Source of the DNA: Alphaproteobacteria bacterium
GTDB lineage: Bacteria; Pseudomonadota; Alphaproteobacteria; GCA-2731375
NCBI GenBank assembly: GCA_016776605.1
Contig: JADHTB010000001.1
Location: 124,001 to 188,000, forward strand
Direction: 5' to 3'
Length of the DNA: 64,000 nt
Shown piece after piece: positions 11,643 to 38,001 of this stretch; the stretch's first letter is position 1; each line of letters opens with the position of its first letter. The position numbers and the translations under genes were made by a program. The notes beneath the pieces are model-generated. The model did no database searches, had not been told where the DNA came from, and saw only the letters and a list, made by a program, of their open reading frames with translations.

Positions 11643-13076
11643 TTGGCCGATCACCAGGACCCGGTGGCAAGCGGCTGGCGCGAAGTCACCCAGGGGCCCG
11701 GCCTGATCCGCCTGGCCCTGGTCATGGGCTGCGTTTCCCTGCACGCCATGGACATCTTTGTCATCGCCACAATTCTGCCCAGCGTGGTCGCGGATATTCA
11801 AGGCGTGGCCTTTTACGCCTGGCCGTCGGCGCTTTATGTCGTCGCCTCGATCATGGGTGCGGCCAGCGGCGGCATGCTGGGTTCAAACCTGGGCCTGCGC
11901 CGGGCGCTGACGATCGCGGCATCGGTCTATTTGCTGGGTGCCTTGATATGCGCCAGTGCGCCCATCATGGCGGTGTTCCTGGTTGGCCGCACCTTCCAGG
12001 GCCTTGGCGGCGGCCTGTTGGTTTCCCTGGCCTTCACCATGACCCGGCAATTGTTCGACGAGAGCCAACGCCCCCGCGTCTTTGCCTTTATGTCGGTGAT
12101 CTGGGGGGTCGCGGCGCTGGTAGGGCCCATCATGGCCGGCGTCTTCGCACAACTGGGTTTTTGGCGCGGGGTTTATTGGCTGACCGTGCCGATTTTCCTG
12201 ATTTTGCTGGCCCTGGCCCGGCGGGCGCTACCTGCTGAAACACCAACGGCCACGGGCGTCAAGCTACCTTGGGAACGGCTGCTGCTGTTGGGTGCGGCGG
12301 TGCTTTGCGTCACAATAAGCGGGCAGACCGCTAACATTGGCCTGCGTCTGACGTTGGTTCTGGGCGCCGTGCTGGGTCTCGCGGCCATGCTAAGGCTTGA
12401 CCATACTGCCGACAACCCGCTGTTGCCCAGCAGTCCGGTCTCGTTACGCCGGGTCGTTGGCACCGGGTATTGGGTTTTTTTCCTGCTGTCCTTCAGTTAC
12501 ACGCCCTTGAGTATATTTCTGCCACTAATGGCCCAGCGTTTGCACGAGGTGCCGCCATCGCTGGCAGGATATGTTTCAGCGGCCCTGTCCATTGGCTGGT
12601 CCACCGGCGCCTTTGCCACGGTCAGTGCCACGCCACGTTTGCAAGGTATCTTGATGGTGACCGGACCGTTGTGCTTGCTGGCTGGGATCGCCGGACAAAG
12701 TCTATTCGTTGTCAGCGGCCCACTCGCGGCCCTTGTCGCCATGGTTTTCCTGACGGGCCTTGGCATCGGCCAGTGCTACGCCCACATCTCCAACACGGCC
12801 ATGAGCCACGCCAAGCCGGGCGAAGAGGCCCTGACCGCCGGTGCCATACCCACCATGCAGACCCTTGGCATTGCCTTTGGCGCCGCCACCGCCGGTCTGC
12901 TGGCCAATATGGCCGGCCTGTCGGGCGGCATCACAGTCGCCACACTGACCGCCGTCACCGAATGGCTCTATGGTTTCGCGCTGATACCGGCCATTTGTAC
13001 CGTACTGGTGGCTCTGCGCCTGGTCTGGCTACTGCGGTCTGGAGCGCATTCGAAGAAAATGCGCTCAGATTCTTAA
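11643..13076 (+). CDS. MFS transporter, about 14 membrane segments
   Basis: The 477-aa membrane protein begins at TTG (11643), with AAGGA at 11631-11635; no better ATG retains the first membrane helix. Hydrophobic segments are spread across the chain, and GRTFQGLGGGLLVSLAF resembles motif C/D regions of drug:H+ antiporter-type MFS carriers. It ends the operon, 11 bases after the flavoprotein, and may export or import the pathway acid. Its last 11 residues (GAHSKKMRSDS) and its stop codon are encoded by the 105-bp element at 13039-13143, so the native C-terminus has been replaced. Confidence 0.85.
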   Translation: MADHQDPVASGWREVTQGPGLIRLALVMGCVSLHAMDIFVIATILPSVVADIQGVAFYAWPSALYVVASIMGAASGGMLGSNLGLRRALTIAASVYLLGALICASAPIMAVFLVGRTFQGLGGGLLVSLAFTMTRQLFDESQRPRVFAFMSVIWGVAALVGPIMAGVFAQLGFWRGVYWLTVPIFLILLALARRALPAETPTATGVKLPWERLLLLGAAVLCVTISGQTANIGLRLTLVLGAVLGLAAMLRLDHTADNPLLPSSPVSLRRVVGTGYWVFFLLSFSYTPLSIFLPLMAQRLHEVPPSLAGYVSAALSIGWSTGAFATVSATPRLQGILMVTGPLCLLAGIAGQSLFVVSGPLAALVAMVFLTGLGIGQCYAHISNTAMSHAKPGEEALTAGAIPTMQTLGIAFGAATAGLLANMAGLSGGITVATLTAVTEWLYGFALIPAICTVLVALRLVWLLRSGAHSKKMRSDS

Positions 13077-13143
13077 AAATAGAGCAATTGAACCAATCAC
13101 TTAAGTTGCTAACGCGACTCCAATTAATTGAAAATTGCTCTAG
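13039..13143 (-). mobile_element. 105-bp palindromic MITE-like element, copy A1
   Basis: Read on the minus strand it begins CTAGAGCAATTTTCAATTAA and ends ATGCGCTCCAG, and is nearly identical over its whole length to copy A2 at 33898-34002. It contains two hairpins: a long one closed by GAGCAATT/AATTGCTC with an inner AGTCGC arm, and a short one GAGCGCATT/AATGCGCTC. The left + strand border reads CTGG instead of CTAG, probably a point change in the TA duplication. It supplies the last 11 codons and stop of the MFS gene and the TAG stop of the convergent CoA-transferase gene. Confidence 0.8.
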
Positions 13144-14327
13144 TCCGACCAGGTCGTAATGACGCCCCGTTGCCGCAAATCGGCAATGGCGGCCGCGTCA
13201 TGGCCCAGTTCGCCCAGCACTTCGTCGTTATGCTGACCCGTGACCGGCGACGTACCGGTGCGGGTGCCGGCCTCGATCCTTGGAATGCCCGGCGGATTGG
13301 GAATGGGCAGCGGGCCTTCCAACCCAGCCAGGTCCAGCCAGGAAAACAATTCCGTCTCGGCCACTTGCGGGTGATCCAGAAATTGTTGGAAATCCTGCAA
13401 CATCTCGTTTTGCAAGCCGGCCTCGGTGAACATATCGCGCCAGTGTCTGGCCGGCTGGGTCAGCAAGATCCCGCCCACCCTTTCCAACAACATATCCGCC
13501 TGGGCCAGGCGTGCCTCATTACTCTGCAAGCTCGGGTCGGATTTCAAATCGTCCATCCCCAGCGCGTCGCAAAGCGTATGGAAATCCTTGTCCTGCAGGA
13601 TGACAAGCTGCAACCAGCCATCACTGGTATGAAAGACCCCGGACGGCGCGGTGCGCGGCGCGTTTTGCAGTTTGCCTTGCGAGGCGGCCATGATGCGTAT
13701 GGCACTGAGGTTGGCCGCGCCCCGCATCAGAGAGACATCGATAAAGCGGCCGTGGCCATCGTCCCGCTTGGCGTACAGCGCCGGGGACAGGGCCTGAAAC
13801 GCATACAGCGCCGTGGACATATCGTTGATAATTGTGTTGGCCCGGTGCGGGATGCCGTCATGCCCCTTGTTGTCCATCATGAAGCCGGTGAAGGCCTGTA
13901 GCACGGGATCCATGGCCGGCTTGCCGCGCAGGGGACCAGTCTGGCCAAAGCCGGAAATAGAGGCATAGATCAAGCCCGGATTTAGCGCCATCAGGCGTTC
14001 ATGGCCAAAGCCCAGACGATCGATAACGCCGGGACGGAAACCTTCCAGAAAAATATCCGCCTTGGCCACCAGGGCATCGATAATGGCGGGGGCCTCGTCG
14101 CTTTTCAGGTCAATGGCCAGGCTGCGTTTGCCCAGACTGCCCAGAAAGGAAAATTCCGTATGATTGGAAGTGGCGGTGCCCAGAACCCGGGCCCAGTCCC
14201 CTTGCAGCGGTTCCACCTTGATCACGTCGGCGCCGTGTTGGGCCAGCAACATGCCGCAATAGGGGCCGGCGATGCCCTGGCTTAAATCCACCACCTTGAT
14301 ACCCTCGTAGGGGCGCTCAAAACTCAT
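13140..14327 (-). CDS. CaiB/BaiF family III CoA-transferase
   Basis: The 395-aa protein has the typical start GIKVVDLSQGIAGPYCGMLL, ADVIKVEP, and catalytic D169 in INDMSTALYA, at the same number as in formyl-CoA transferase. It moves CoA between carboxylic acids without ATP. It is convergent with the MFS gene and its TAG stop at 13140-13142 lies in the terminal CTAG of element A1. Downstream on the same strand order it is preceded by the MBL, PrpD and GST genes, with a 12-base gap to the MBL gene. Confidence 0.88.
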   Translation of the reverse strand: MSFERPYEGIKVVDLSQGIAGPYCGMLLAQHGADVIKVEPLQGDWARVLGTATSNHTEFSFLGSLGKRSLAIDLKSDEAPAIIDALVAKADIFLEGFRPGVIDRLGFGHERLMALNPGLIYASISGFGQTGPLRGKPAMDPVLQAFTGFMMDNKGHDGIPHRANTIINDMSTALYAFQALSPALYAKRDDGHGRFIDVSLMRGAANLSAIRIMAASQGKLQNAPRTAPSGVFHTSDGWLQLVILQDKDFHTLCDALGMDDLKSDPSLQSNEARLAQADMLLERVGGILLTQPARHWRDMFTEAGLQNEMLQDFQQFLDHPQVAETELFSWLDLAGLEGPLPIPNPPGIPRIEAGTRTGTSPVTGQHNDEVLGELGHDAAAIADLRQRGVITTWSD

Positions 14328-15234: not shown

Positions 15235-16620
15235 CTATGCGTCCGCGCCAACCTGCCAGGACGTCACGTGGGCCAGCAATTTGCCCGTATCGTCCACGTT
15301 TTCCAAAGCATGCAGATCAGCCAACAGCGCCGCCGCTACCGTCTCTCCCAACAGGGGCACGGCAAGGCTGCGGAATTTGGCGTCAATCTTCAGGCCCTGG
15401 GCCGCGACATCCTGGGCCGGCACGCCCACATCGAAACTGCGTTCCAGGGTCTGGCCGTCATGCAGGGTAATGCGCGCCGTAGCCAGGGTGCTGGGGCCGC
15501 CGTCGTCAACGATTGCAACCTTGCGCCGCAGGGCCACAAGTTCGGGCGCCAGGGCATTGGCATCCGAGTAACTCTCGATGCTGGCGGTGTCTGTTCCCGC
15601 CAGGGCAAAGGCGGCGGTATGGCGCAGGCTGAACTTTACCTCTAATCCGGTATCCGGTTCCTGAATATTGCAGACCTTCAAATGGCCGGGGTCCACCGAC
15701 AGGACGACGCTGTCTATCTGCTCGGGTGTGATCTGCCCTTCGTCCCGCAGATCGGCCAGGATTTCGATGGTGGAATGGGTCAGGTAACAGGCGGCGTGAT
15801 ACTTGAATAAATTCTCCCGCACATGAAAGCCGCGCCGGGGTGTCTGCAAGGCGCGCTCGTCGCGAAAGTCGTCACTTTGCGTATCAGCAAATCCCTGGGG
15901 CGCCTCCAGTATATCCGGGCGCGAGGTAAAACCGCGCCGGGCCAGCCGTGCCGCCAACAGGCCATTGCCGGCGGCCTTGCCCGCATGCAGCGGTTTGCAC
16001 ATGGTACCGAACTGCGCCTTTAAACCGGCGGCCTGGGTGCCCGCGATGCCCAGGGCCCGCGCCATGGCCTCCCCATCCAGGCCCAGCAGATGGCCGACCC
16101 CCGCCGCCGCGCCAAAGCTGCCGACCGTGGCCGTGACGTGGAAGCCTTTCTGGTAGTGGCTGGGCGCGACCAGATTACCAATACGGCATTCGGTCTCGTA
16201 ACCGGCCACGAAGGCGGTTAACAGATCGCGGCCCGTCGCACCCATGTCCTCGGCCACGGCCAGAACAGCCGCCCCCACCTGTGCCGTGGGATGTCCGCCC
16301 ATGGTGAGGTTGACGTCATCATAGTCCAGCGCGTGAGAGCCTGCCCCGTTGACCAGACAGGCCTGGGCCAGGGTACCCTTCGTCCCCGCCCCGATAAGGG
16401 TGGCGCGCGGTCGCCCGCCTTCCTCCGCCACCTCCGCCAGCAACAAAGCAGTCAAAGGTTCCTCGGCCCCGGCCAGGGTGACGGCGAACCAGTCGATCAA
16501 GCATTGTTTGGCAACCGCCAGACTGTCGGCATCAATATCTTCAAAACGCAGATTGGCGGCACCTTGCGCCAGGTTTTCAGTGATCGCGGGTGTCGCATCT
16601 GCAAGAGCGGGGCTGCTCAT
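15235..16620 (-). CDS. MmgE/PrpD family protein
   Basis: The 461-aa protein matches the 2-methylcitrate dehydratase / cis-aconitate decarboxylase superfamily, with CLIDWFAVTLAG near the start, GAGSHALDYDDVN, GHPTAQVGAAVLA and a C-terminal small lid domain. The family dehydrates or decarboxylates tricarboxylic or branched acids. With LeuC/LeuD and CoA-transferase genes nearby, a role on a dicarboxylic or tricarboxylic intermediate is a reasonable inference. The 5' leader contains one copy of a direct repeat (16626-16694). Confidence 0.85.
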   Translation of the reverse strand: MSSPALADATPAITENLAQGAANLRFEDIDADSLAVAKQCLIDWFAVTLAGAEEPLTALLLAEVAEEGGRPRATLIGAGTKGTLAQACLVNGAGSHALDYDDVNLTMGGHPTAQVGAAVLAVAEDMGATGRDLLTAFVAGYETECRIGNLVAPSHYQKGFHVTATVGSFGAAAGVGHLLGLDGEAMARALGIAGTQAAGLKAQFGTMCKPLHAGKAAGNGLLAARLARRGFTSRPDILEAPQGFADTQSDDFRDERALQTPRRGFHVRENLFKYHAACYLTHSTIEILADLRDEGQITPEQIDSVVLSVDPGHLKVCNIQEPDTGLEVKFSLRHTAAFALAGTDTASIESYSDANALAPELVALRRKVAIVDDGGPSTLATARITLHDGQTLERSFDVGVPAQDVAAQGLKIDAKFRSLAVPLLGETVAAALLADLHALENVDDTGKLLAHVTSWQVGADA

Positions 16621-29938: not shown

Positions 29939-30976
29939 GTGGCAAAATCTATCCTTAAATCAACAGCAACCGTGGCAACCGCTGCGTTTGTCGCATTGAG
30001 TTTCGGCGCCATATCCACGGCGCAGGCTGAGAAATCCGTTTGGAATTTCAACATGTGGGGCGGCAAGCGCGCCTTCACGGCTGGCCTTGAATCAATAAAG
30101 GTCGACCTGGAAAAGGCCGGCGGCGGCGATTTCGAGCTCAAAATCAATTACGGCGACGCCTTGGGCCCGCGCCGGCAAAACCCGGAAAACATCCGCGTCG
30201 GCGCCTTCGAGGCCGGGCAAATCTGTGTCGGCTACTATCCAAATAAATTCCCTCTTTTGTCAGTGATGGAATTGCCCTTCCTTGCCCCCCGCAATTTGGC
30301 GCAACGGGCCAAGGTGGAAATGGAAGTTCATAAACATCCGGCTATCATCGCGGAACTGTCCAAGCGCTGGAACATGCGGTTCTTTGGCCCCGCCTTCCTG
30401 CCGGCCTATGAATTCATGGGCAACAAGCGGATCGAGACCACGGCCGACATGAAGGGCGTGAAGATGCGCATTTCCGGCCTGAACGCCAAGGCGTTGCAGG
30501 TCTTCGGCGCCGTGCCGACCATGGTGACCGCGCCCGACGGCTACAATGCCCTGGATCGTGGCACCATCGACAGCTTCGGCTTCCCCTACAGCTACGCCTT
30601 TGGCGCCTACAAGCTGTACGAGGTATCCAAGTACGTGACCGAGGGCCTGGGCATGAGCGGTTTCATGTGCCTGCAAACGGTGAACAATGATGCCTGGAAC
30701 GCGACCCCGGATGCCGTCAAGAAGGCCATGCCGGCGGCACAGCAAACTGCCATCAAGAACATGATCACGGCCTATACCGAAGCGGACAAGAAATGGATCC
30801 CGCTGTTCCACAAGAGACTGGAAGTGGTAAAGGTCGACCCCTCGGTTCGGGCTGAACTGGCCTCGGGCGCTGGCAAGATCTGGGCTGAATGGGCCACCGA
30901 GCAAGACGGCAAGGGCCGCCCCGGCACCGAGATGTTGAACTTCGTCAAATCCCTCGTCGCCAAGCATGGTAAATAA
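29939..30976 (+). CDS. dctP: TRAP transporter substrate-binding protein, DctP family
   Basis: The 345-aa periplasmic protein starts at GTG with GGGGAG 9 bases upstream. A signal peptide covers residues 1-29 (hydrophobic VATAAFVALSFGAIS, cleavage after TAQA). The mature part has the DctP features KGVKMRISGLNAKALQVFGA and the arginine that usually binds the carboxylate group of the ligand (KMRIS). It delivers an organic acid to the DctQM permease encoded next. Confidence 0.87.
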   Translation: MAKSILKSTATVATAAFVALSFGAISTAQAEKSVWNFNMWGGKRAFTAGLESIKVDLEKAGGGDFELKINYGDALGPRRQNPENIRVGAFEAGQICVGYYPNKFPLLSVMELPFLAPRNLAQRAKVEMEVHKHPAIIAELSKRWNMRFFGPAFLPAYEFMGNKRIETTADMKGVKMRISGLNAKALQVFGAVPTMVTAPDGYNALDRGTIDSFGFPYSYAFGAYKLYEVSKYVTEGLGMSGFMCLQTVNNDAWNATPDAVKKAMPAAQQTAIKNMITAYTEADKKWIPLFHKRLEVVKVDPSVRAELASGAGKIWAEWATEQDGKGRPGTEMLNFVKSLVAKHGK

Positions 30977-33218: not shown

Positions 33219-33307
33219 TGGCGGAGGGAGGGGGACTCGAACCCCCGCAACGCTATTACGCGTTGACGGATTAGCAATCCGTTGCATTACCGCTCTGCCA
33301 TCCCTCC
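33219..33307 (-). tRNA. tRNA-Ser(GCT)
   Basis: On the minus strand an 89-base cloverleaf is visible: acceptor GGAGGGA (33301-33307) pairs with TCCCTCC (33223-33229), discriminator G, and an encoded CCA (33219-33221). The anticodon stem-loop is CGGATTGCTAATCCG with anticodon GCT, the long variable arm expected of serine tRNA is present (AACGCGTAATAGCGTT), and the T loop is GTTCGAGTC. It reads AGC/AGU codons. Confidence 0.96.
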
Positions 33308-33586
33308 AGCACGCAGCGAATGCATCTTCTAACCAGCGCTCCAATAGCTGTCAATTGATATCGGTGGCAGAAGCGTCATGAGTTTGATCTGGGTTGCACC
33401 CTGAATAGAGTTGTCATTAACCTTTCAGTAATCATCCGGAAATACCAAGGATATACTGGGTTTTTGACCGTGATATGACTGTAATTGCACATTTTCTTAT
33501 TTGCCATAATTCATAATTTATTAATGGCGATAATCTATATTTTTAATCAAAGGCGAAGAACCGCTTCAACGATAAAGGATATGGAC

Positions 33587-33901
33587 ATGTTTCGTCCCTT
33601 AATCGCACTGACGGCCATGGCAACTGGTTTGCTGTTTTCTTCATATGCCTCGGCGCAACAGGTTCCAGCCGGCACGGTCTGCGGGGAAAGGGCAAAATTC
33701 CTAAAACATTTAGGCAAAACTCATAAAGAATCCCCTACCGCCATGGGTGTCACCGCATCCGGCCGGGTATTGGAGGTATTGACCTCGTCAGATGGCACCT
33801 GGACCATTCTCATCACCCACCCCAACGGCGTCACCTGCATGATCACCGCCGGACAGGCTTGGGAAAATGTTGAACGCATTGCCCTGGGGCCAAGCACCTA
33901 G
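33587..33901 (+). CDS. Small exported protein of unknown function
   Basis: The 104-aa protein starts with a clear signal peptide (MFRPLIALTAMATGLLFSSYASA, cleavage before QQ). The mature 80 residues hold two cysteines (GTVCGERA and HPNGVTCMI), which may form a disulfide, and an RVLEVLTSSDGTWTILITHP beta segment. The ATG at 33587 is chosen for AAGGA at 33575-33579. It is preceded by an AT-rich leader (33308-33586) with no other gene. Its TAG stop lies in the left CTAG border of element A2. Family not recognised. Confidence 0.8.
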   Translation: MFRPLIALTAMATGLLFSSYASAQQVPAGTVCGERAKFLKHLGKTHKESPTAMGVTASGRVLEVLTSSDGTWTILITHPNGVTCMITAGQAWENVERIALGPST

Positions 33902-34002
33902 AGCGATTTTCAATTAGTTGGAGTCGCTATCGCGACTTAAGTGATTGGTTCAATTGCTCTATCTTTAAGAGTCAGAGCGCATTTTCTTCGAATGCGCTCT
34001 AG
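33898..34002 (+). mobile_element. 105-bp palindromic MITE-like element, copy A2
   Basis: Bounded by CTAG on both sides (33898-33901 and 33999-34002). Hairpin 1 is closed by GAGCGATT (33901-33908) and AATTGCTC (33952-33959) with inner arms AGTCGC/GCGACT (33922-33927, 33932-33937). Hairpin 2 is GAGCGCATT/AATGCGCTC (33975-33983, 33991-33999). It is nearly identical, in opposite genome orientation, to copy A1. Its left CTAG includes the TAG stop of the exported protein gene. Confidence 0.82.
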
Positions 34003-34097
34003 AGCCGTTCCGGTATATTCCGCGAATCCGTTACAAAACAGGATCGTCGCGATTCAAGGTGCCGTAATTCAAAATTTGGGGAAAATATCGATCAAAG

Positions 34098-34123
34098 CCG
34101 GCTTTCTTGTGCCGGTATTTTTT
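34098..34123 (+). terminator. Possible rho-independent terminator
   Basis: CCGGC (34098-34102) and GCCGG (34111-34115) form a 5-bp stem with an 8-base loop, followed by TA and six T (34118-34123). It lies in the spacer between elements A2 and B1 and could end the transcript of the exported protein gene. The stem is short. Confidence 0.35.
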
Positions 34124-34126
34124 AGG

Positions 34127-34231
34127 CTAGAGCAATTCCGAATTGATGAGAATCGCGAAGCGATTCTAAGTGATTGGAAAAATTGCTCTAAATCTAAAGA
34201 TCTGAGCATTTTCAGAATGAAAATGCTCTAG
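34127..34231 (+). mobile_element. 105-bp palindromic MITE-like element, copy B1
   Basis: Bounded by CTAG at 34127-34130 and 34228-34231. Hairpin 1: GAGCAATT (34130-34137) with AATTGCTC (34181-34188), inner 8-bp stem AGAATCGC/GCGATTCT with loop GAA (34149-34167). Hairpin 2: perfect 10-bp stem GAGCATTTTC/GAAAATGCTC (34204-34213, 34219-34228). Same length and architecture as copies A1/A2 but different stem sequences, and nearly the same sequence as B2. Confidence 0.82.
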
Positions 34232-37135: not shown

Positions 37136-37240
37136 CTAGAGCAATTCCGAATTAATGAGAATCGCGAAACGATTCTAAGTTATTGGAAAAATTGCTCTAA
37201 TTCTAAAGATCTGAGTATTTTCAGAATAAAGATGCTCTAG
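37136..37240 (+). mobile_element. 105-bp palindromic MITE-like element, copy B2
   Basis: Bounded by CTAG at 37136-37139 and 37237-37240. Sequence is about 90% the same as B1, with the inner stem GAATCG/CGATTC preserved and the short hairpin (GAGTATTTTC/AAAGATGCTC) partly decayed to G-T pairs and one mismatch. The right CTAG contains the TAG stop (37237-37239, minus strand) of the CinA-N gene. Confidence 0.8.
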
Positions 37241-38001
37241 GCATCCGCTTCGATAGGTTCGCCATCCAGATCACGCATCAACCGGCGAATGTCTTCCGCC
37301 GCCGCCGTCAATCTGTCCGGCTTCTGGCTGCGGGCAACGATAGAGGCGCCAAAGCGGCCGTCGCGATAGAAAGGGTATGAGCCCATGCTCACGTCGGGAT
37401 ATTTATCCTGCAGGGCGCTCAATCCATTGGCCAGGGTGCCTTCCGCCAAATGGACCGCGATGGAGATCGAATGCACCGGGTCTCCACCGGCCAGTTCGTG
37501 CTTCAGGCTGTGGAACATTGCCTGGCAGACGGCCGGAATGCCCGCCATGACATAAACATTCTCGACCCGGAAACCGGGCGCCTTGCTGACTGGGTTTTCG
37601 ATCAGGGAAGCACCGGCCGGGGTGCGGGCCATGCGCATGCGGGCCTGGTTCAATTCGGCGCCCGTATGGGCGTAATGCGCCTTCAGGATCGCCACGGCCT
37701 CCGGGTTGTGATCCACTGGCAGACCAAAGGCCGCGCCGATGCTGTCGGCGGTAATATCATCATGGGTGGGGCCAATGCCGCCAGTGGTAAAGACATAGTC
37801 AAAGCGGGCCCGCAGGTCGTTGACCGCGGCCACGATCTCCGCCTTGACATCCGCGACCACGCGGCATTCATGCAACTGCACACCGACCTCGTTCAAATTT
37901 TCAGCCAGAAAACTTAAATTCTGATCCTTGGTCCGGCCCGATAAAATCTCGTCACCAATGATGATAACGGCCGCGGTTACGGTCTTTGGCTGATCGGACA
38001 T
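37237..38001 (-). CDS. CinA N-terminal / molybdopterin-binding domain protein
   Basis: The 254-aa protein has the MoCF_biosynth fold: AAVIIIGDEILSGRTKDQN, the loop TTGGIGPTHDDITADS and SYPFYRDGR. It corresponds to the N-terminal COG1058 half of competence/damage-inducible CinA; the C-terminal deamidase domain is absent, as is usual for alphaproteobacterial members. Related proteins act on ADP-ribose or NMN-type substrates. It is divergent from sfsA. Its stop TAG lies in element B2. Confidence 0.87.
   Translation of the reverse strand: MSDQPKTVTAAVIIIGDEILSGRTKDQNLSFLAENLNEVGVQLHECRVVADVKAEIVAAVNDLRARFDYVFTTGGIGPTHDDITADSIGAAFGLPVDHNPEAVAILKAHYAHTGAELNQARMRMARTPAGASLIENPVSKAPGFRVENVYVMAGIPAVCQAMFHSLKHELAGGDPVHSISIAVHLAEGTLANGLSALQDKYPDVSMGSYPFYRDGRFGASIVARSQKPDRLTAAAEDIRRLMRDLDGEPIEADA

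What the first reader, a model, noticed from the sequence alone, without database searches (positions are those of the whole stretch)
33898..34231. Family of 105-bp intergenic elements with two covarying hairpins and CTAG borders
Four copies (13039-13143 reversed, 33898-34002, 34127-34231, 37136-37240) are each exactly 105 bp from CTAG to CTAG. All have the same plan: a long hairpin closed by GAGC(A/G)ATT/AATTGCTC with an inner stem, then a short hairpin. Subfamily A (13039, 33898) and B (34127, 37136) have different stem sequences that keep pairing: AGTCGC/GCGACT versus GAATCGC/GCGATTC, and GAGCGCATT/AATGCGCTC versus GAGCATTTTC/GAAAATGCTC. Such compensatory change implies selection on the fold. 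The CTAG target with duplicated TA is known for IS630/Tc1-mariner elements, so these look like non-autonomous MITEs of that type, possibly moved by a transposase elsewhere in the genome.
Basis: partly seen in the sequence, partly recalled or inferred. Interest (0 to 1): 0.85.

Follow-up and report, generated by a model that had tools for sequence, protein, structure and literature searches.

The report
Jumping hairpin repeats at stop codons
The repeats are tiny DNA parasites without genes, present in an estimated 240 to 260 copies in an uncultured, probably marine bacterium; they appear to be moved by an IS630-type jumping gene and often land exactly on the stop signals of genes, where they should do little harm.

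Summary
Four 105-bp two-hairpin elements lie at the stated places; three run CTAG to CTAG, the 13039 copy has CTGG on one side. In the own genome 150 of 150 scored candidates match the family model (capped), and 26 copies in 464 kb suggest about 257 in all. The family is in all 11 held genomes of the genus and in 0 of 30 genomes of other genera.

Evidence for an IS630-type MITE: borders are YTAR, with TA on both sides in 57 of 72 copies. One of 14 inspected sites is a gapless empty site with a single TA in a congener. A 1048-bp IS630 element in congener G009 shares its terminal 12 bases with two of three MITEs read in that genome. All 18 IS630 ends that I delimited follow CTA or TTA. In the own genome only an IS630 stub at a contig end was found.

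Added here: 36 of 77 full-length copies lie exactly on a called stop codon.

The two-arm plan with GANTC sites matches published descriptions of alphaproteobacterial CIR repeats; Bru-RS and RIME look alike. This is a new member of a known kind with an unusually clear mobiliser.

The parts
33898..34002 (+). Full-length element, subfamily A (hairpin 1 about 33899-33961, linker about 33962-33974 with GAGTC, hairpin 2 about 33975-33999)
34127..34231 (+). Full-length element, subfamily B (hairpin 1 about 34128-34190, linker about 34191-34203, hairpin 2 about 34204-34228)
37136..37240 (+). Full-length element, subfamily B; not seen at this place in 10 of 10 congeners (130 bp next to the gene examined)
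13039..13143 (-). Full-length element, subfamily A; window-left border CTGG instead of CTAG
33485..33901 (+). ORF (138 aa, no Pfam match) whose TAG stop is the left CTAG of the 33898 element
37237..38001 (-). Gene with molybdopterin-binding and FAD-synthase-middle domains (PF00994, PF24102; CinA-like is my reading) whose TAG stop is the right CTAG of the 37136 element
13140..14327 (-). CoA-transferase family III gene (PF02515) whose TAG stop is the border CTAG of the 13039 element
11643..13076 (+). MFS transporter ORF (PF07690) that runs into the 13039 element and ends inside it

Best explanation
[quoted passage not shown] Proposed working: the transposase binds the outer ends (GAGCAATTCC or GAGCAATTTT on the left; GAGCATTTCC, GAGCATTTTC or GAGCGCATTC on the right), cuts the element out and pastes it into the TA of a YTAR site, best CTAG, which duplicates TA. 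CTAG is about 6.5-fold rarer than base composition predicts in the sampled DNA, and a good part of the CTAG sites outside genes are TAG stop codons. Insertion there restores the stop on the gene side, so copies collect at gene ends and are lost from gene interiors. Shown here: copy number, ends, target, one clean empty site, an IS630 with identical 12-bp end in a congener that carries the MITEs, stop-codon positions, no orientation bias. Inferred: transposase binding, cut-and-paste in trans, and neutrality of stop-codon insertion.
For: Ends and target: of 72 full-length A or B copies, 57 have TA on both sides; flanking letters are C..G in 44, T..G in 14, C..A in 7, A..G in 5, C..T in 2. Clean empty site: L076:13126 against congener G007, no gap after removing element plus one TA. 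IS630 partner: L158 in G009 is 1048 bp, with an HTH ORF (PF13518, PF01710) overlapping a DDE ORF (PF13358, NF033545) and ends GAGCATTTCCGAC / GAGCGTTTCCGAC after TA. Of three MITEs read in the same genome two end in exactly GAGCATTTCCGA; the third is altered at its border. Of 43 MITEs read in relatives 22 have that right end (38 of the 43 come from loci fetched by a pattern that fixed the left end, not the right). 18 of 18 delimited IS630 ends follow CTA (15) or TTA (3). Own genome: IS630 stub at the end of contig C27, starting TA|GAGCGTGTTC, at the TAG stop of a lipid A acyltransferase gene. History: B copies are a median 3% and A copies 6% from consensus; a B copy lies nested in a partial A copy, and two B copies are in tandem sharing one CTAG. 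Stop codons: 36 of 77 full-length copies on a called stop, 34 intergenic, 6 entered by a gene, 1 inside a gene. With strict CTAG borders only, CTAG occupancy is 20 of 70 at stops, 11 of 142 intergenic, 0 of 186 in genes (stop against intergenic p=0.0001). Orientation to the stopped gene 21 against 20 (5 copies count twice).
Against: No IS630 with exactly matching ends was found in the own genome; the one stub matches own ends at best 10 of 12. Only 1 of 14 inspected sites gave a fully clean empty site; L074:4462 against L213 is gap-free but reads AAAG where the TA site is expected, and most others have diverged or carry indels at the junction. Two old A-type copies are shared with G007 at the same place (L077:3129, L062:10579), so some copies are inherited. 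Three A copies in tandem are joined by AG and two (one partial) by AC instead of TA, not explained by simple insertion. Paired sites vary about half as much as unpaired ones, and in A 19 of 34 single stem changes keep a G-T pair, which leaves room for some constraint on the fold. In the contig C1 part of the sample the stop excess is weak (10/39 against 13/90 for all copies, p=0.14; 7/36 against 5/82 for strict CTAG borders, p=0.04).
Confidence: 0.85

Rival explanations
1. The elements are MITEs moved by a different TA-duplicating transposase, the IS5/IS427 type (that of Brucella IS711; the grouping is recalled), which also inserts at YTAR.
For: PF13340 transposases occur in 7 of 11 genus genomes (6 over the cut-off), and the delimited copies sit at CTAG, CTAA or TTAA. 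A published IS711 insertion duplicated TA at YTAR (passages of PMC3163539).
Against: Ends could be delimited at 4 of 11 loci; they read GGGTCTGTGGACA, GGGCCTGTTGACA, GGGYCTGTTGAGA and AGTGTCCGTCCCG, unlike GAGCAATTCC, whereas an IS630 matches 12 of 12. MITE-like ends of 10 or 11 of 12 occur in three of the loci, outside the delimited element in two (L233, L241); the third (L242) was not delimited. No match in the own genome.
Confidence: 0.05
2. Structured functional RNA or DNA elements (3' UTR hairpins, terminators, or CcrM methylation sites) kept at gene ends by selection on each copy, with mobility secondary.
For: Strong folds; covariation between subfamilies; 36 of 77 copies on stop codons; GANTC at 1.7-2.0 per element against 0.35-0.43 in base shuffles; paired sites vary less than unpaired, and in A most single stem changes keep a G-T pair.
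Against: No orientation preference relative to the gene (21 against 20). 36 of 50 single stem changes in B copies break the pair. Many sites lack the element in congeners. The linker GANTC is absent in 45 of 47 B copies.
Confidence: 0.07
3. REP/BIME-type repeats moved by a RAYT (Y1) transposase, or palindromes spread by recombination without a transposase.
For: Hairpins in extragenic places, A/B hybrids (4 of 84 copies) and tandem arrays.
Against: Defined ends with TA on both sides and an IS630 with the same end. No RAYT search was made. Hybrids and tandems can arise by recombination among existing copies.
Confidence: 0.03

Closest known systems
RUP, the 107-bp repeat unit of pneumococcus, thought to be moved by IS630-Spn1
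   Same: About 105 bp, no gene, ends similar to an IS630-family element, TA at the insertion site, 108 intergenic copies reported (passages of PMC2229807 and PMC3049150).
   Different: Different phylum; RUP is reported to favour insertion sequences, whereas these often sit on TAG stop codons and have two hairpins with a linker.
CIR, Caulobacter CcrM-associated intergenic repeats (Chen and Shapiro 2003)
   Same: About 110 bp, intergenic, TA at the ends, two arms joined by a linker, GANTC near the tip of one arm, Alphaproteobacteria (section 7 and Table 1 passage of PMC2229807).
   Different: Sequence relation could not be tested (original paper not held). The review says more information is needed on the mobility of CIR; here an IS630 partner is identified.
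Bru-RS1 and Bru-RS2 of Brucella
   Same: Two related palindromic repeats of 103 and 106 bp, found between genes (passages of PMC3163539 and PMC10800456).
   Different: Sequences not compared here; in the passages seen they appear as insertion sites of IS711 and as recombination points.
RIME, Rhizobium-specific intergenic mosaic elements (Osteras 1995)
   Same: A CTAGAGC two-hairpin-like element with GAATC between the hairpins was found on S. meliloti pSymB at 30045 (the fold was read by eye), and A/B mosaics occur here.
   Different: Only the citation of the RIME paper was seen; that the pSymB element is RIME is recalled, not tested. Stem sequences differ.
Correia/NEMIS elements of Neisseria
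   Same: MITEs of about 107 bp (and 155 bp) with TA at the ends (passages of PMC2229807).
   Different: 24-bp terminal repeats pairing end to end; here two separate hairpins.

Membership tests
IS630-mobilised MITE | Short, no transposase gene, many near-identical copies | tested here: met
   105 bp; 84 non-redundant copies in 859 kb; 150 of 150 scored candidates genome-wide
IS630-mobilised MITE | Target TA duplicated on insertion | tested here: met
   TA on both sides in 57 of 72 copies; one gapless empty site with a single TA among 14 inspected; tandem B copies with period 101 sharing one CTAG
IS630-mobilised MITE | Ends shared with an IS630-family transposon | tested here: met
   12 of 12 terminal bases shared between the L158 IS630 and two of three MITEs read in the same congener genome; in the own genome only a partly matching stub
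IS630-mobilised MITE | Moved by that transposase in trans | not testable with these tools
   needs an assay
[quoted passage not shown]
   1 of 77 copies inside a called gene, 6 entered by one
[quoted passage not shown]
   GANTC 1.68 (A), 1.98 (B), 1.95 (relatives) per element against 0.37, 0.35, 0.43 in base shuffles; copies are not independent. The apex stem reads AATCGC/GCGATT in 37 of 47 B copies
[quoted passage not shown]
   the 2003 paper is not held; the genus model matched only 2 class genomes outside the genus, weakly, among 240 searched
Bru-RS1/Bru-RS2 | 103 and 106 bp related palindromic repeats; sequence identity | not tested
   lengths compared from paper passages only
RIME | Two palindromes in a mosaic intergenic element | tested here: inconclusive
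   one similar-plan element on pSymB; identity with RIME not verified
IS5/IS427-mobilised MITE | Ends shared with an IS427-type element | tested here: not met
   ends GGGYCTGT or AGTGTCCGTC at the 4 of 11 genus loci that could be delimited

The most novel reading that the evidence does not exclude
The two-arm, GANTC-bearing intergenic repeats scattered through Alphaproteobacteria (CIR, Bru-RS, RIME and this family) are one architecture, repeatedly re-sequenced in each genus but always an IS630-driven MITE that uses TAG stop codons as harmless landing sites. The conserved GANTC would be kept because methylation state times or gates transposition.
Probability: 0.3. Interest if true: 0.65.

Novelty: new member of a known kind. 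Interest (0 to 1): 0.46.

Why it matters
A review says that more information is needed on how CIR repeats move (PMC2229807). This genus offers MITEs and an IS630 with an identical end in one genome, together with target, an empty site and age classes, so the question becomes testable. The stop-codon landing pattern gives a simple reason why such repeats sit at gene ends without any regulatory function: CTAG is rare, and outside genes it is often a stop codon. If the GANTC sites matter, they would tie transposition to the cell-cycle methylase.

Tried and rejected
Rfam search of the window at gathering threshold gave only a tRNA. BLAST of the B element against plasmids gave nothing at E 0.01. 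DDE_3 search in the own genome gave no match and first suggested an orphan family; this was corrected when a profile of congener transposases hit 38 residues at the very end of contig C27. Several congener hits also end contigs, so multi-copy insertion sequences are probably collapsed there and transposase counts from these draft genomes are likely too low.

RNAalifold on alignment A2 placed the inner helix in another register, because the A and B loops differ by one base; pair counts were therefore made only on the outer helix and hairpin 2, and model R1 lacks the apex helix that single copies fold.

The idea that stop-codon positions reflect a directional terminator was tested by orientation (21 against 20) and dropped. 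Whether stop codons are favoured beyond CTAG is open: for all 77 copies against empty CTAG p=0.0006, in the C1 part p=0.14 (here the occupied sites include TTAG and others while the empty ones are CTAG only); for copies with strict CTAG borders p=0.0001, in the C1 part p=0.04. A test on ORFs of 200 codons or more gave 28 of 60 copies against 56 of 367 empty CTAG. Genes came from a simple ORF and codon-usage script of mine, not a standard gene finder.

Counts: one search listed 118 matches. I kept the 83 of 51.8 bits or more and added one tandem copy known, which makes 84; the 35 dropped are opposite-strand shadows and weak hits, some of which may be decayed copies. 77 of the 84 are 100-108 bp; 5 unclassed ones were left out. 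L060-L079 were chosen because they hold copies. Of the C1 part (window plus L040-L059), L059 was also chosen with copies known: without it 23 copies in 444 kb scale to about 238, with it 26 in 464 kb to about 257. The IS630 ends are those that I could delimit by eye with a TA; the right end of L090 (first base altered) was left out, and several ends are copies of one element in G002 and G005.

Papers: passages only of PMC2267715, PMC3049150, PMC2170065, PMC10969869, PMC2873474, PMC3163539 and PMC10800456; one named section plus passages of PMC2229807; Chen and Shapiro 2003 was asked for and not held; Halling and Bricker 1994, Osteras 1995 and Tenzen and Ohtsubo 1991 seen only as citations. A search for IS630 with 'TAG stop codon' found 0 papers, and one for Bru-RS, RIME, CIR, IS630 and Ochrobactrum (three of five) found 0; wider searches were seen as listings, with passages read from three of the 20 papers listed.

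Full report
Observation. The four elements are present at the stated places, each 105 bp long. Three run CTAG to CTAG; the 13039 copy has CTGG at one border. Each folds into a long hairpin (with an inner apex stem), a linker of about 13 bases and a short hairpin; the four MFE z-scores are -5.2, -7.1, -6.3 and -5.0, with 0 of 200 shuffles as stable.

Copy number. A covariance model from 19 copies matched 150 of 150 scored candidates in the own genome at 94-123 bits, with 1634 first-look candidates. In 859 kb of own sequence listed 118 matches, from which I kept 83, plus one tandem copy: 84 in all. The C1 part (window plus L040-L059, 464 kb) holds 26, which scales to about 257 in 4.6 Mb; leaving out L059, which was chosen with copies known, 23 in 444 kb scale to about 238. 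Subfamily B copies are a median 3% from their consensus (43 copies of exactly 105 bp), A copies 6% (19 copies), so B probably spread more recently. Four of the 84 look like A/B hybrids (L059:8456, L069:12217, L063:15772, L075:13297; read by eye).

Who carries them. All 11 held genomes of the genus have the family, and 0 of 30 genomes of other genera do at E 0.001. In 240 genomes drawn from the class only 4 match the model: own, one congener, and two genomes with a single weak hit each (38.6 and 33.8 bits). An exact-pattern scan of the public species genomes gave 32 stretches from seven metagenome-assembled genomes called Rhodospirillaceae or Alphaproteobacteria, with isolate names such as Arabian10_MAG_24, ANT-29 and SI072_bin164; that these are marine samples is my reading of the names. 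The host is therefore an uncultured, probably marine, alphaproteobacterial genus.

Ends and target. In 72 full-length copies classed A or B, both borders hold TA in 57, and the outer letters are C..G in 44, T..G in 14, C..A in 7, A..G in 5 and C..T in 2. The target is thus YTAR with CTAG preferred, although CTAG occurs at only 0.15 of the rate that base composition predicts in the 859 kb (477 sites, those in the elements included). Two B copies stand in tandem with period 101 and one shared CTAG, as expected if one inserted into the end of the other. A B copy lies inside a partial A copy (L023:1361-1466), and an A copy carries a fragment like a B end, apparently at the same inner TA (L060:9036). 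Three A copies in tandem (L034) are joined by AG, and one full and one partial copy (L036) by AC, where TA would be expected; this is unexplained.

Empty sites. I searched joined flanks of 27 own copies in six congeners and aligned 14 sites that gave matches at the junction. One is fully clean: removing the element and one TA of L076:13126 gives a gapless alignment with G007 through CTAG/CTAA. At L078:16103 the congener G002 has the TTAG stop unoccupied, with one flank conserved. At the gene end L044:17618, which I read as a sigma factor gene (no family search made), G002 and G007 keep an unoccupied CTAG at the stop, with the far flank diverged. L074:4462 against L213 is gap-free but has AAAG in place of the TA site. 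The rest have diverged or carry indels at the junction. At the 37136 site none of 10 congeners shows an element in the 130 bp next to the gene. Two older A-type copies (L077:3129, L062:10579) have an A-type sequence at the same place in G007, so these were inherited.

The mobiliser. IS630-type DDE domains (PF13358) are over threshold in 9 of 11 genus genomes. The best, L158 in G009, is 1048 bp with an HTH ORF (PF13518 and PF01710 over cut-off) overlapping a DDE ORF (PF13358; NF033545 IS630 family transposase). Its ends, after TA, read GAGCATTTCCGAC and GAGCGTTTCCGAC. Of three MITEs read in the same genome, two end in exactly GAGCATTTCCGA and the third is altered at its border. Of 43 MITEs read in relatives 22 have that right end and 31 have GAGCAATTCCGA at the left; 38 of the 43 lie in loci fetched by a pattern containing the left end, so only the right-end count is free of that choice. 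For scale, among 21,122 TA-adjacent 12-mers in 400 kb of own sequence 15 reach 12 of 12, and I take these to be MITE ends themselves (not checked one by one). The 18 IS630 ends that I could delimit all follow CTA (15) or TTA (3); ends were recognised with the help of a TA, so the informative part is the pyrimidine before it. The in vitro precedent is ISY100, an IS630-family element that cuts at its 3' ends and duplicates a target TA (abstract and passages of PMC2170065).

The own genome first seemed to lack IS630. A profile from three congener transposases then hit 38 residues at bases 12175-12288 of contig C27, which is 12288 long. The stub begins TA|GAGCGTGTTC and sits at the TAG stop of a lipid A acyltransferase gene (PF03279). 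Similar stubs lie at contig ends in G002, G005 and others, as multi-copy elements do in short-read assemblies. No own IS630 with exactly matching ends was seen; the stub's best match to a MITE end is 10 of 12.

A rival mobiliser was tested. PF13340 (IS427-type) elements occur in 7 of 11 genus genomes, not in the own one; IS711 of Brucella is reported to use YTAR (PMC3163539). The 4 of 11 loci that I could delimit sit at CTAG, CTAA or TTAA with ends GGGYCTGT or AGTGTCCGTC, which do not match the MITE. MITE-like ends (10 or 11 of 12) occur elsewhere in loci L233 and L241, and in L242, which was not delimited.

Stop codons. Three of the four window copies share a border with the TAG stop of an ORF (ORF ends 33901, 37237, 13140). 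With a simple gene caller, 36 of 77 full-length copies lie exactly on a gene stop, 34 are intergenic, 6 are entered by a gene and 1 is inside one. Against empty CTAG sites (50 stop, 131 intergenic, 186 genic) stop versus intergenic gives p=0.0006 overall and p=0.14 in the C1 part. Restricting to the 33 copies with CTAG at both borders, occupancy is 20 of 70 at stops, 11 of 142 intergenic and 0 of 186 in genes (p=0.0001; C1 part 7 of 36 against 5 of 82, p=0.04). Genes meet the long or the short hairpin first in 21 and 20 cases, five copies counting on both sides, so no directional 3'-end function is visible. The simplest account is a CTAG-preferring transposase plus removal of insertions inside genes; insertion into a TAG stop rebuilds the stop.

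The fold. Between subfamilies the stems covary: 5 of 20 tested pairs change on both sides, and the covariation score is 0.240 against 0.135 in shuffles, while the number of pair types does not exceed shuffles. Inside B, 50 cells have one side changed, of which 36 break the pair and 14 remain as G-T; six have both sides changed, four of them still paired. Inside A, 34 cells have one side changed, of which 15 break and 19 remain as G-T; three have both sides changed, two still paired. Paired sites vary at 0.027 against 0.045 for unpaired sites in B, and 0.042 against 0.089 in A (all). So the palindromes are kept in the lineages that spread, with a modest sign of upkeep in individual copies, stronger in A than in B; some of the variation is shared by descent and not independent.

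Comparison with what is known. The plan (about 110 bp, intergenic, two arms, a linker, GANTC near one tip) is that given for CIR of Caulobacter and Brucella in a review (PMC2229807 section 7), which adds that their mobility needs more information. GANTC is 4.5 to 5.7 times commoner in these elements than in base shuffles, though 45 of 47 B copies lack the linker site. [quoted passage not shown] The two weak class hits (G048, G070) and a pSymB element of S. meliloti show, by eye, the same plan with other stem sequences. The closest functional precedent is RUP with IS630-Spn1. I file the family as an IS630-type MITE, a new member of a known kind, that looks like and may belong with CIR, Bru-RS and RIME; sequence membership in those could not be tested.

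Noticed in passing
L034:1001-1306 and L036:1001-1158 (own contigs C31, C25): Tandem A copies with period about 101 are joined by AG or AC in place of TA; the same AG junction occurs twice, as if a minicircle or unequal exchange made the array.
   Followed up: partly
L085:2087-2193: A 107-bp element with the same two-hairpin plan but different stems (CTAGAGCAACCC...), perhaps a third family in the genus.
   Followed up: no
L236:1404-2249, L239:958-1818, L241:970-1815: IS427-type insertion sequences of 843-858 bp in congeners with ends GGGYCTGT, inserted at CTAG (one border CTAA), the same target as the IS630 elements.
   Followed up: partly
L062, about 15537-15571: A 35-bp sequence TTAGAGCAGTTC...GAGCTGCTCTAG with short inverted ends adjoins a B copy, possibly a still shorter non-autonomous element.
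   Followed up: no
window 33999-34013 and right flank of L061:5871-5975: Directly after A copies the host sequence reads CTAGAGCCGTTCCGG or CTAGAGCATTTCCGG, like a further IS630-type end.
   Followed up: no
L103, L105, L109, L120, L130 and others: In relatives the apex of hairpin 1 is often extended by about 10-12 bases (elements of 115-117 bp), while the outer parts stay constant.
   Followed up: no
L073:7049-7152: An A copy sits between two units of a 16-bp tandem repeat (GGTGGCCCGCAGGTTA), so the neighbouring unit shows the empty TTAG target.
   Followed up: partly
window 33219-33307: tRNA-Ser (GCT) gene, about 600 bp from the first of the two neighbouring elements.
   Followed up: no
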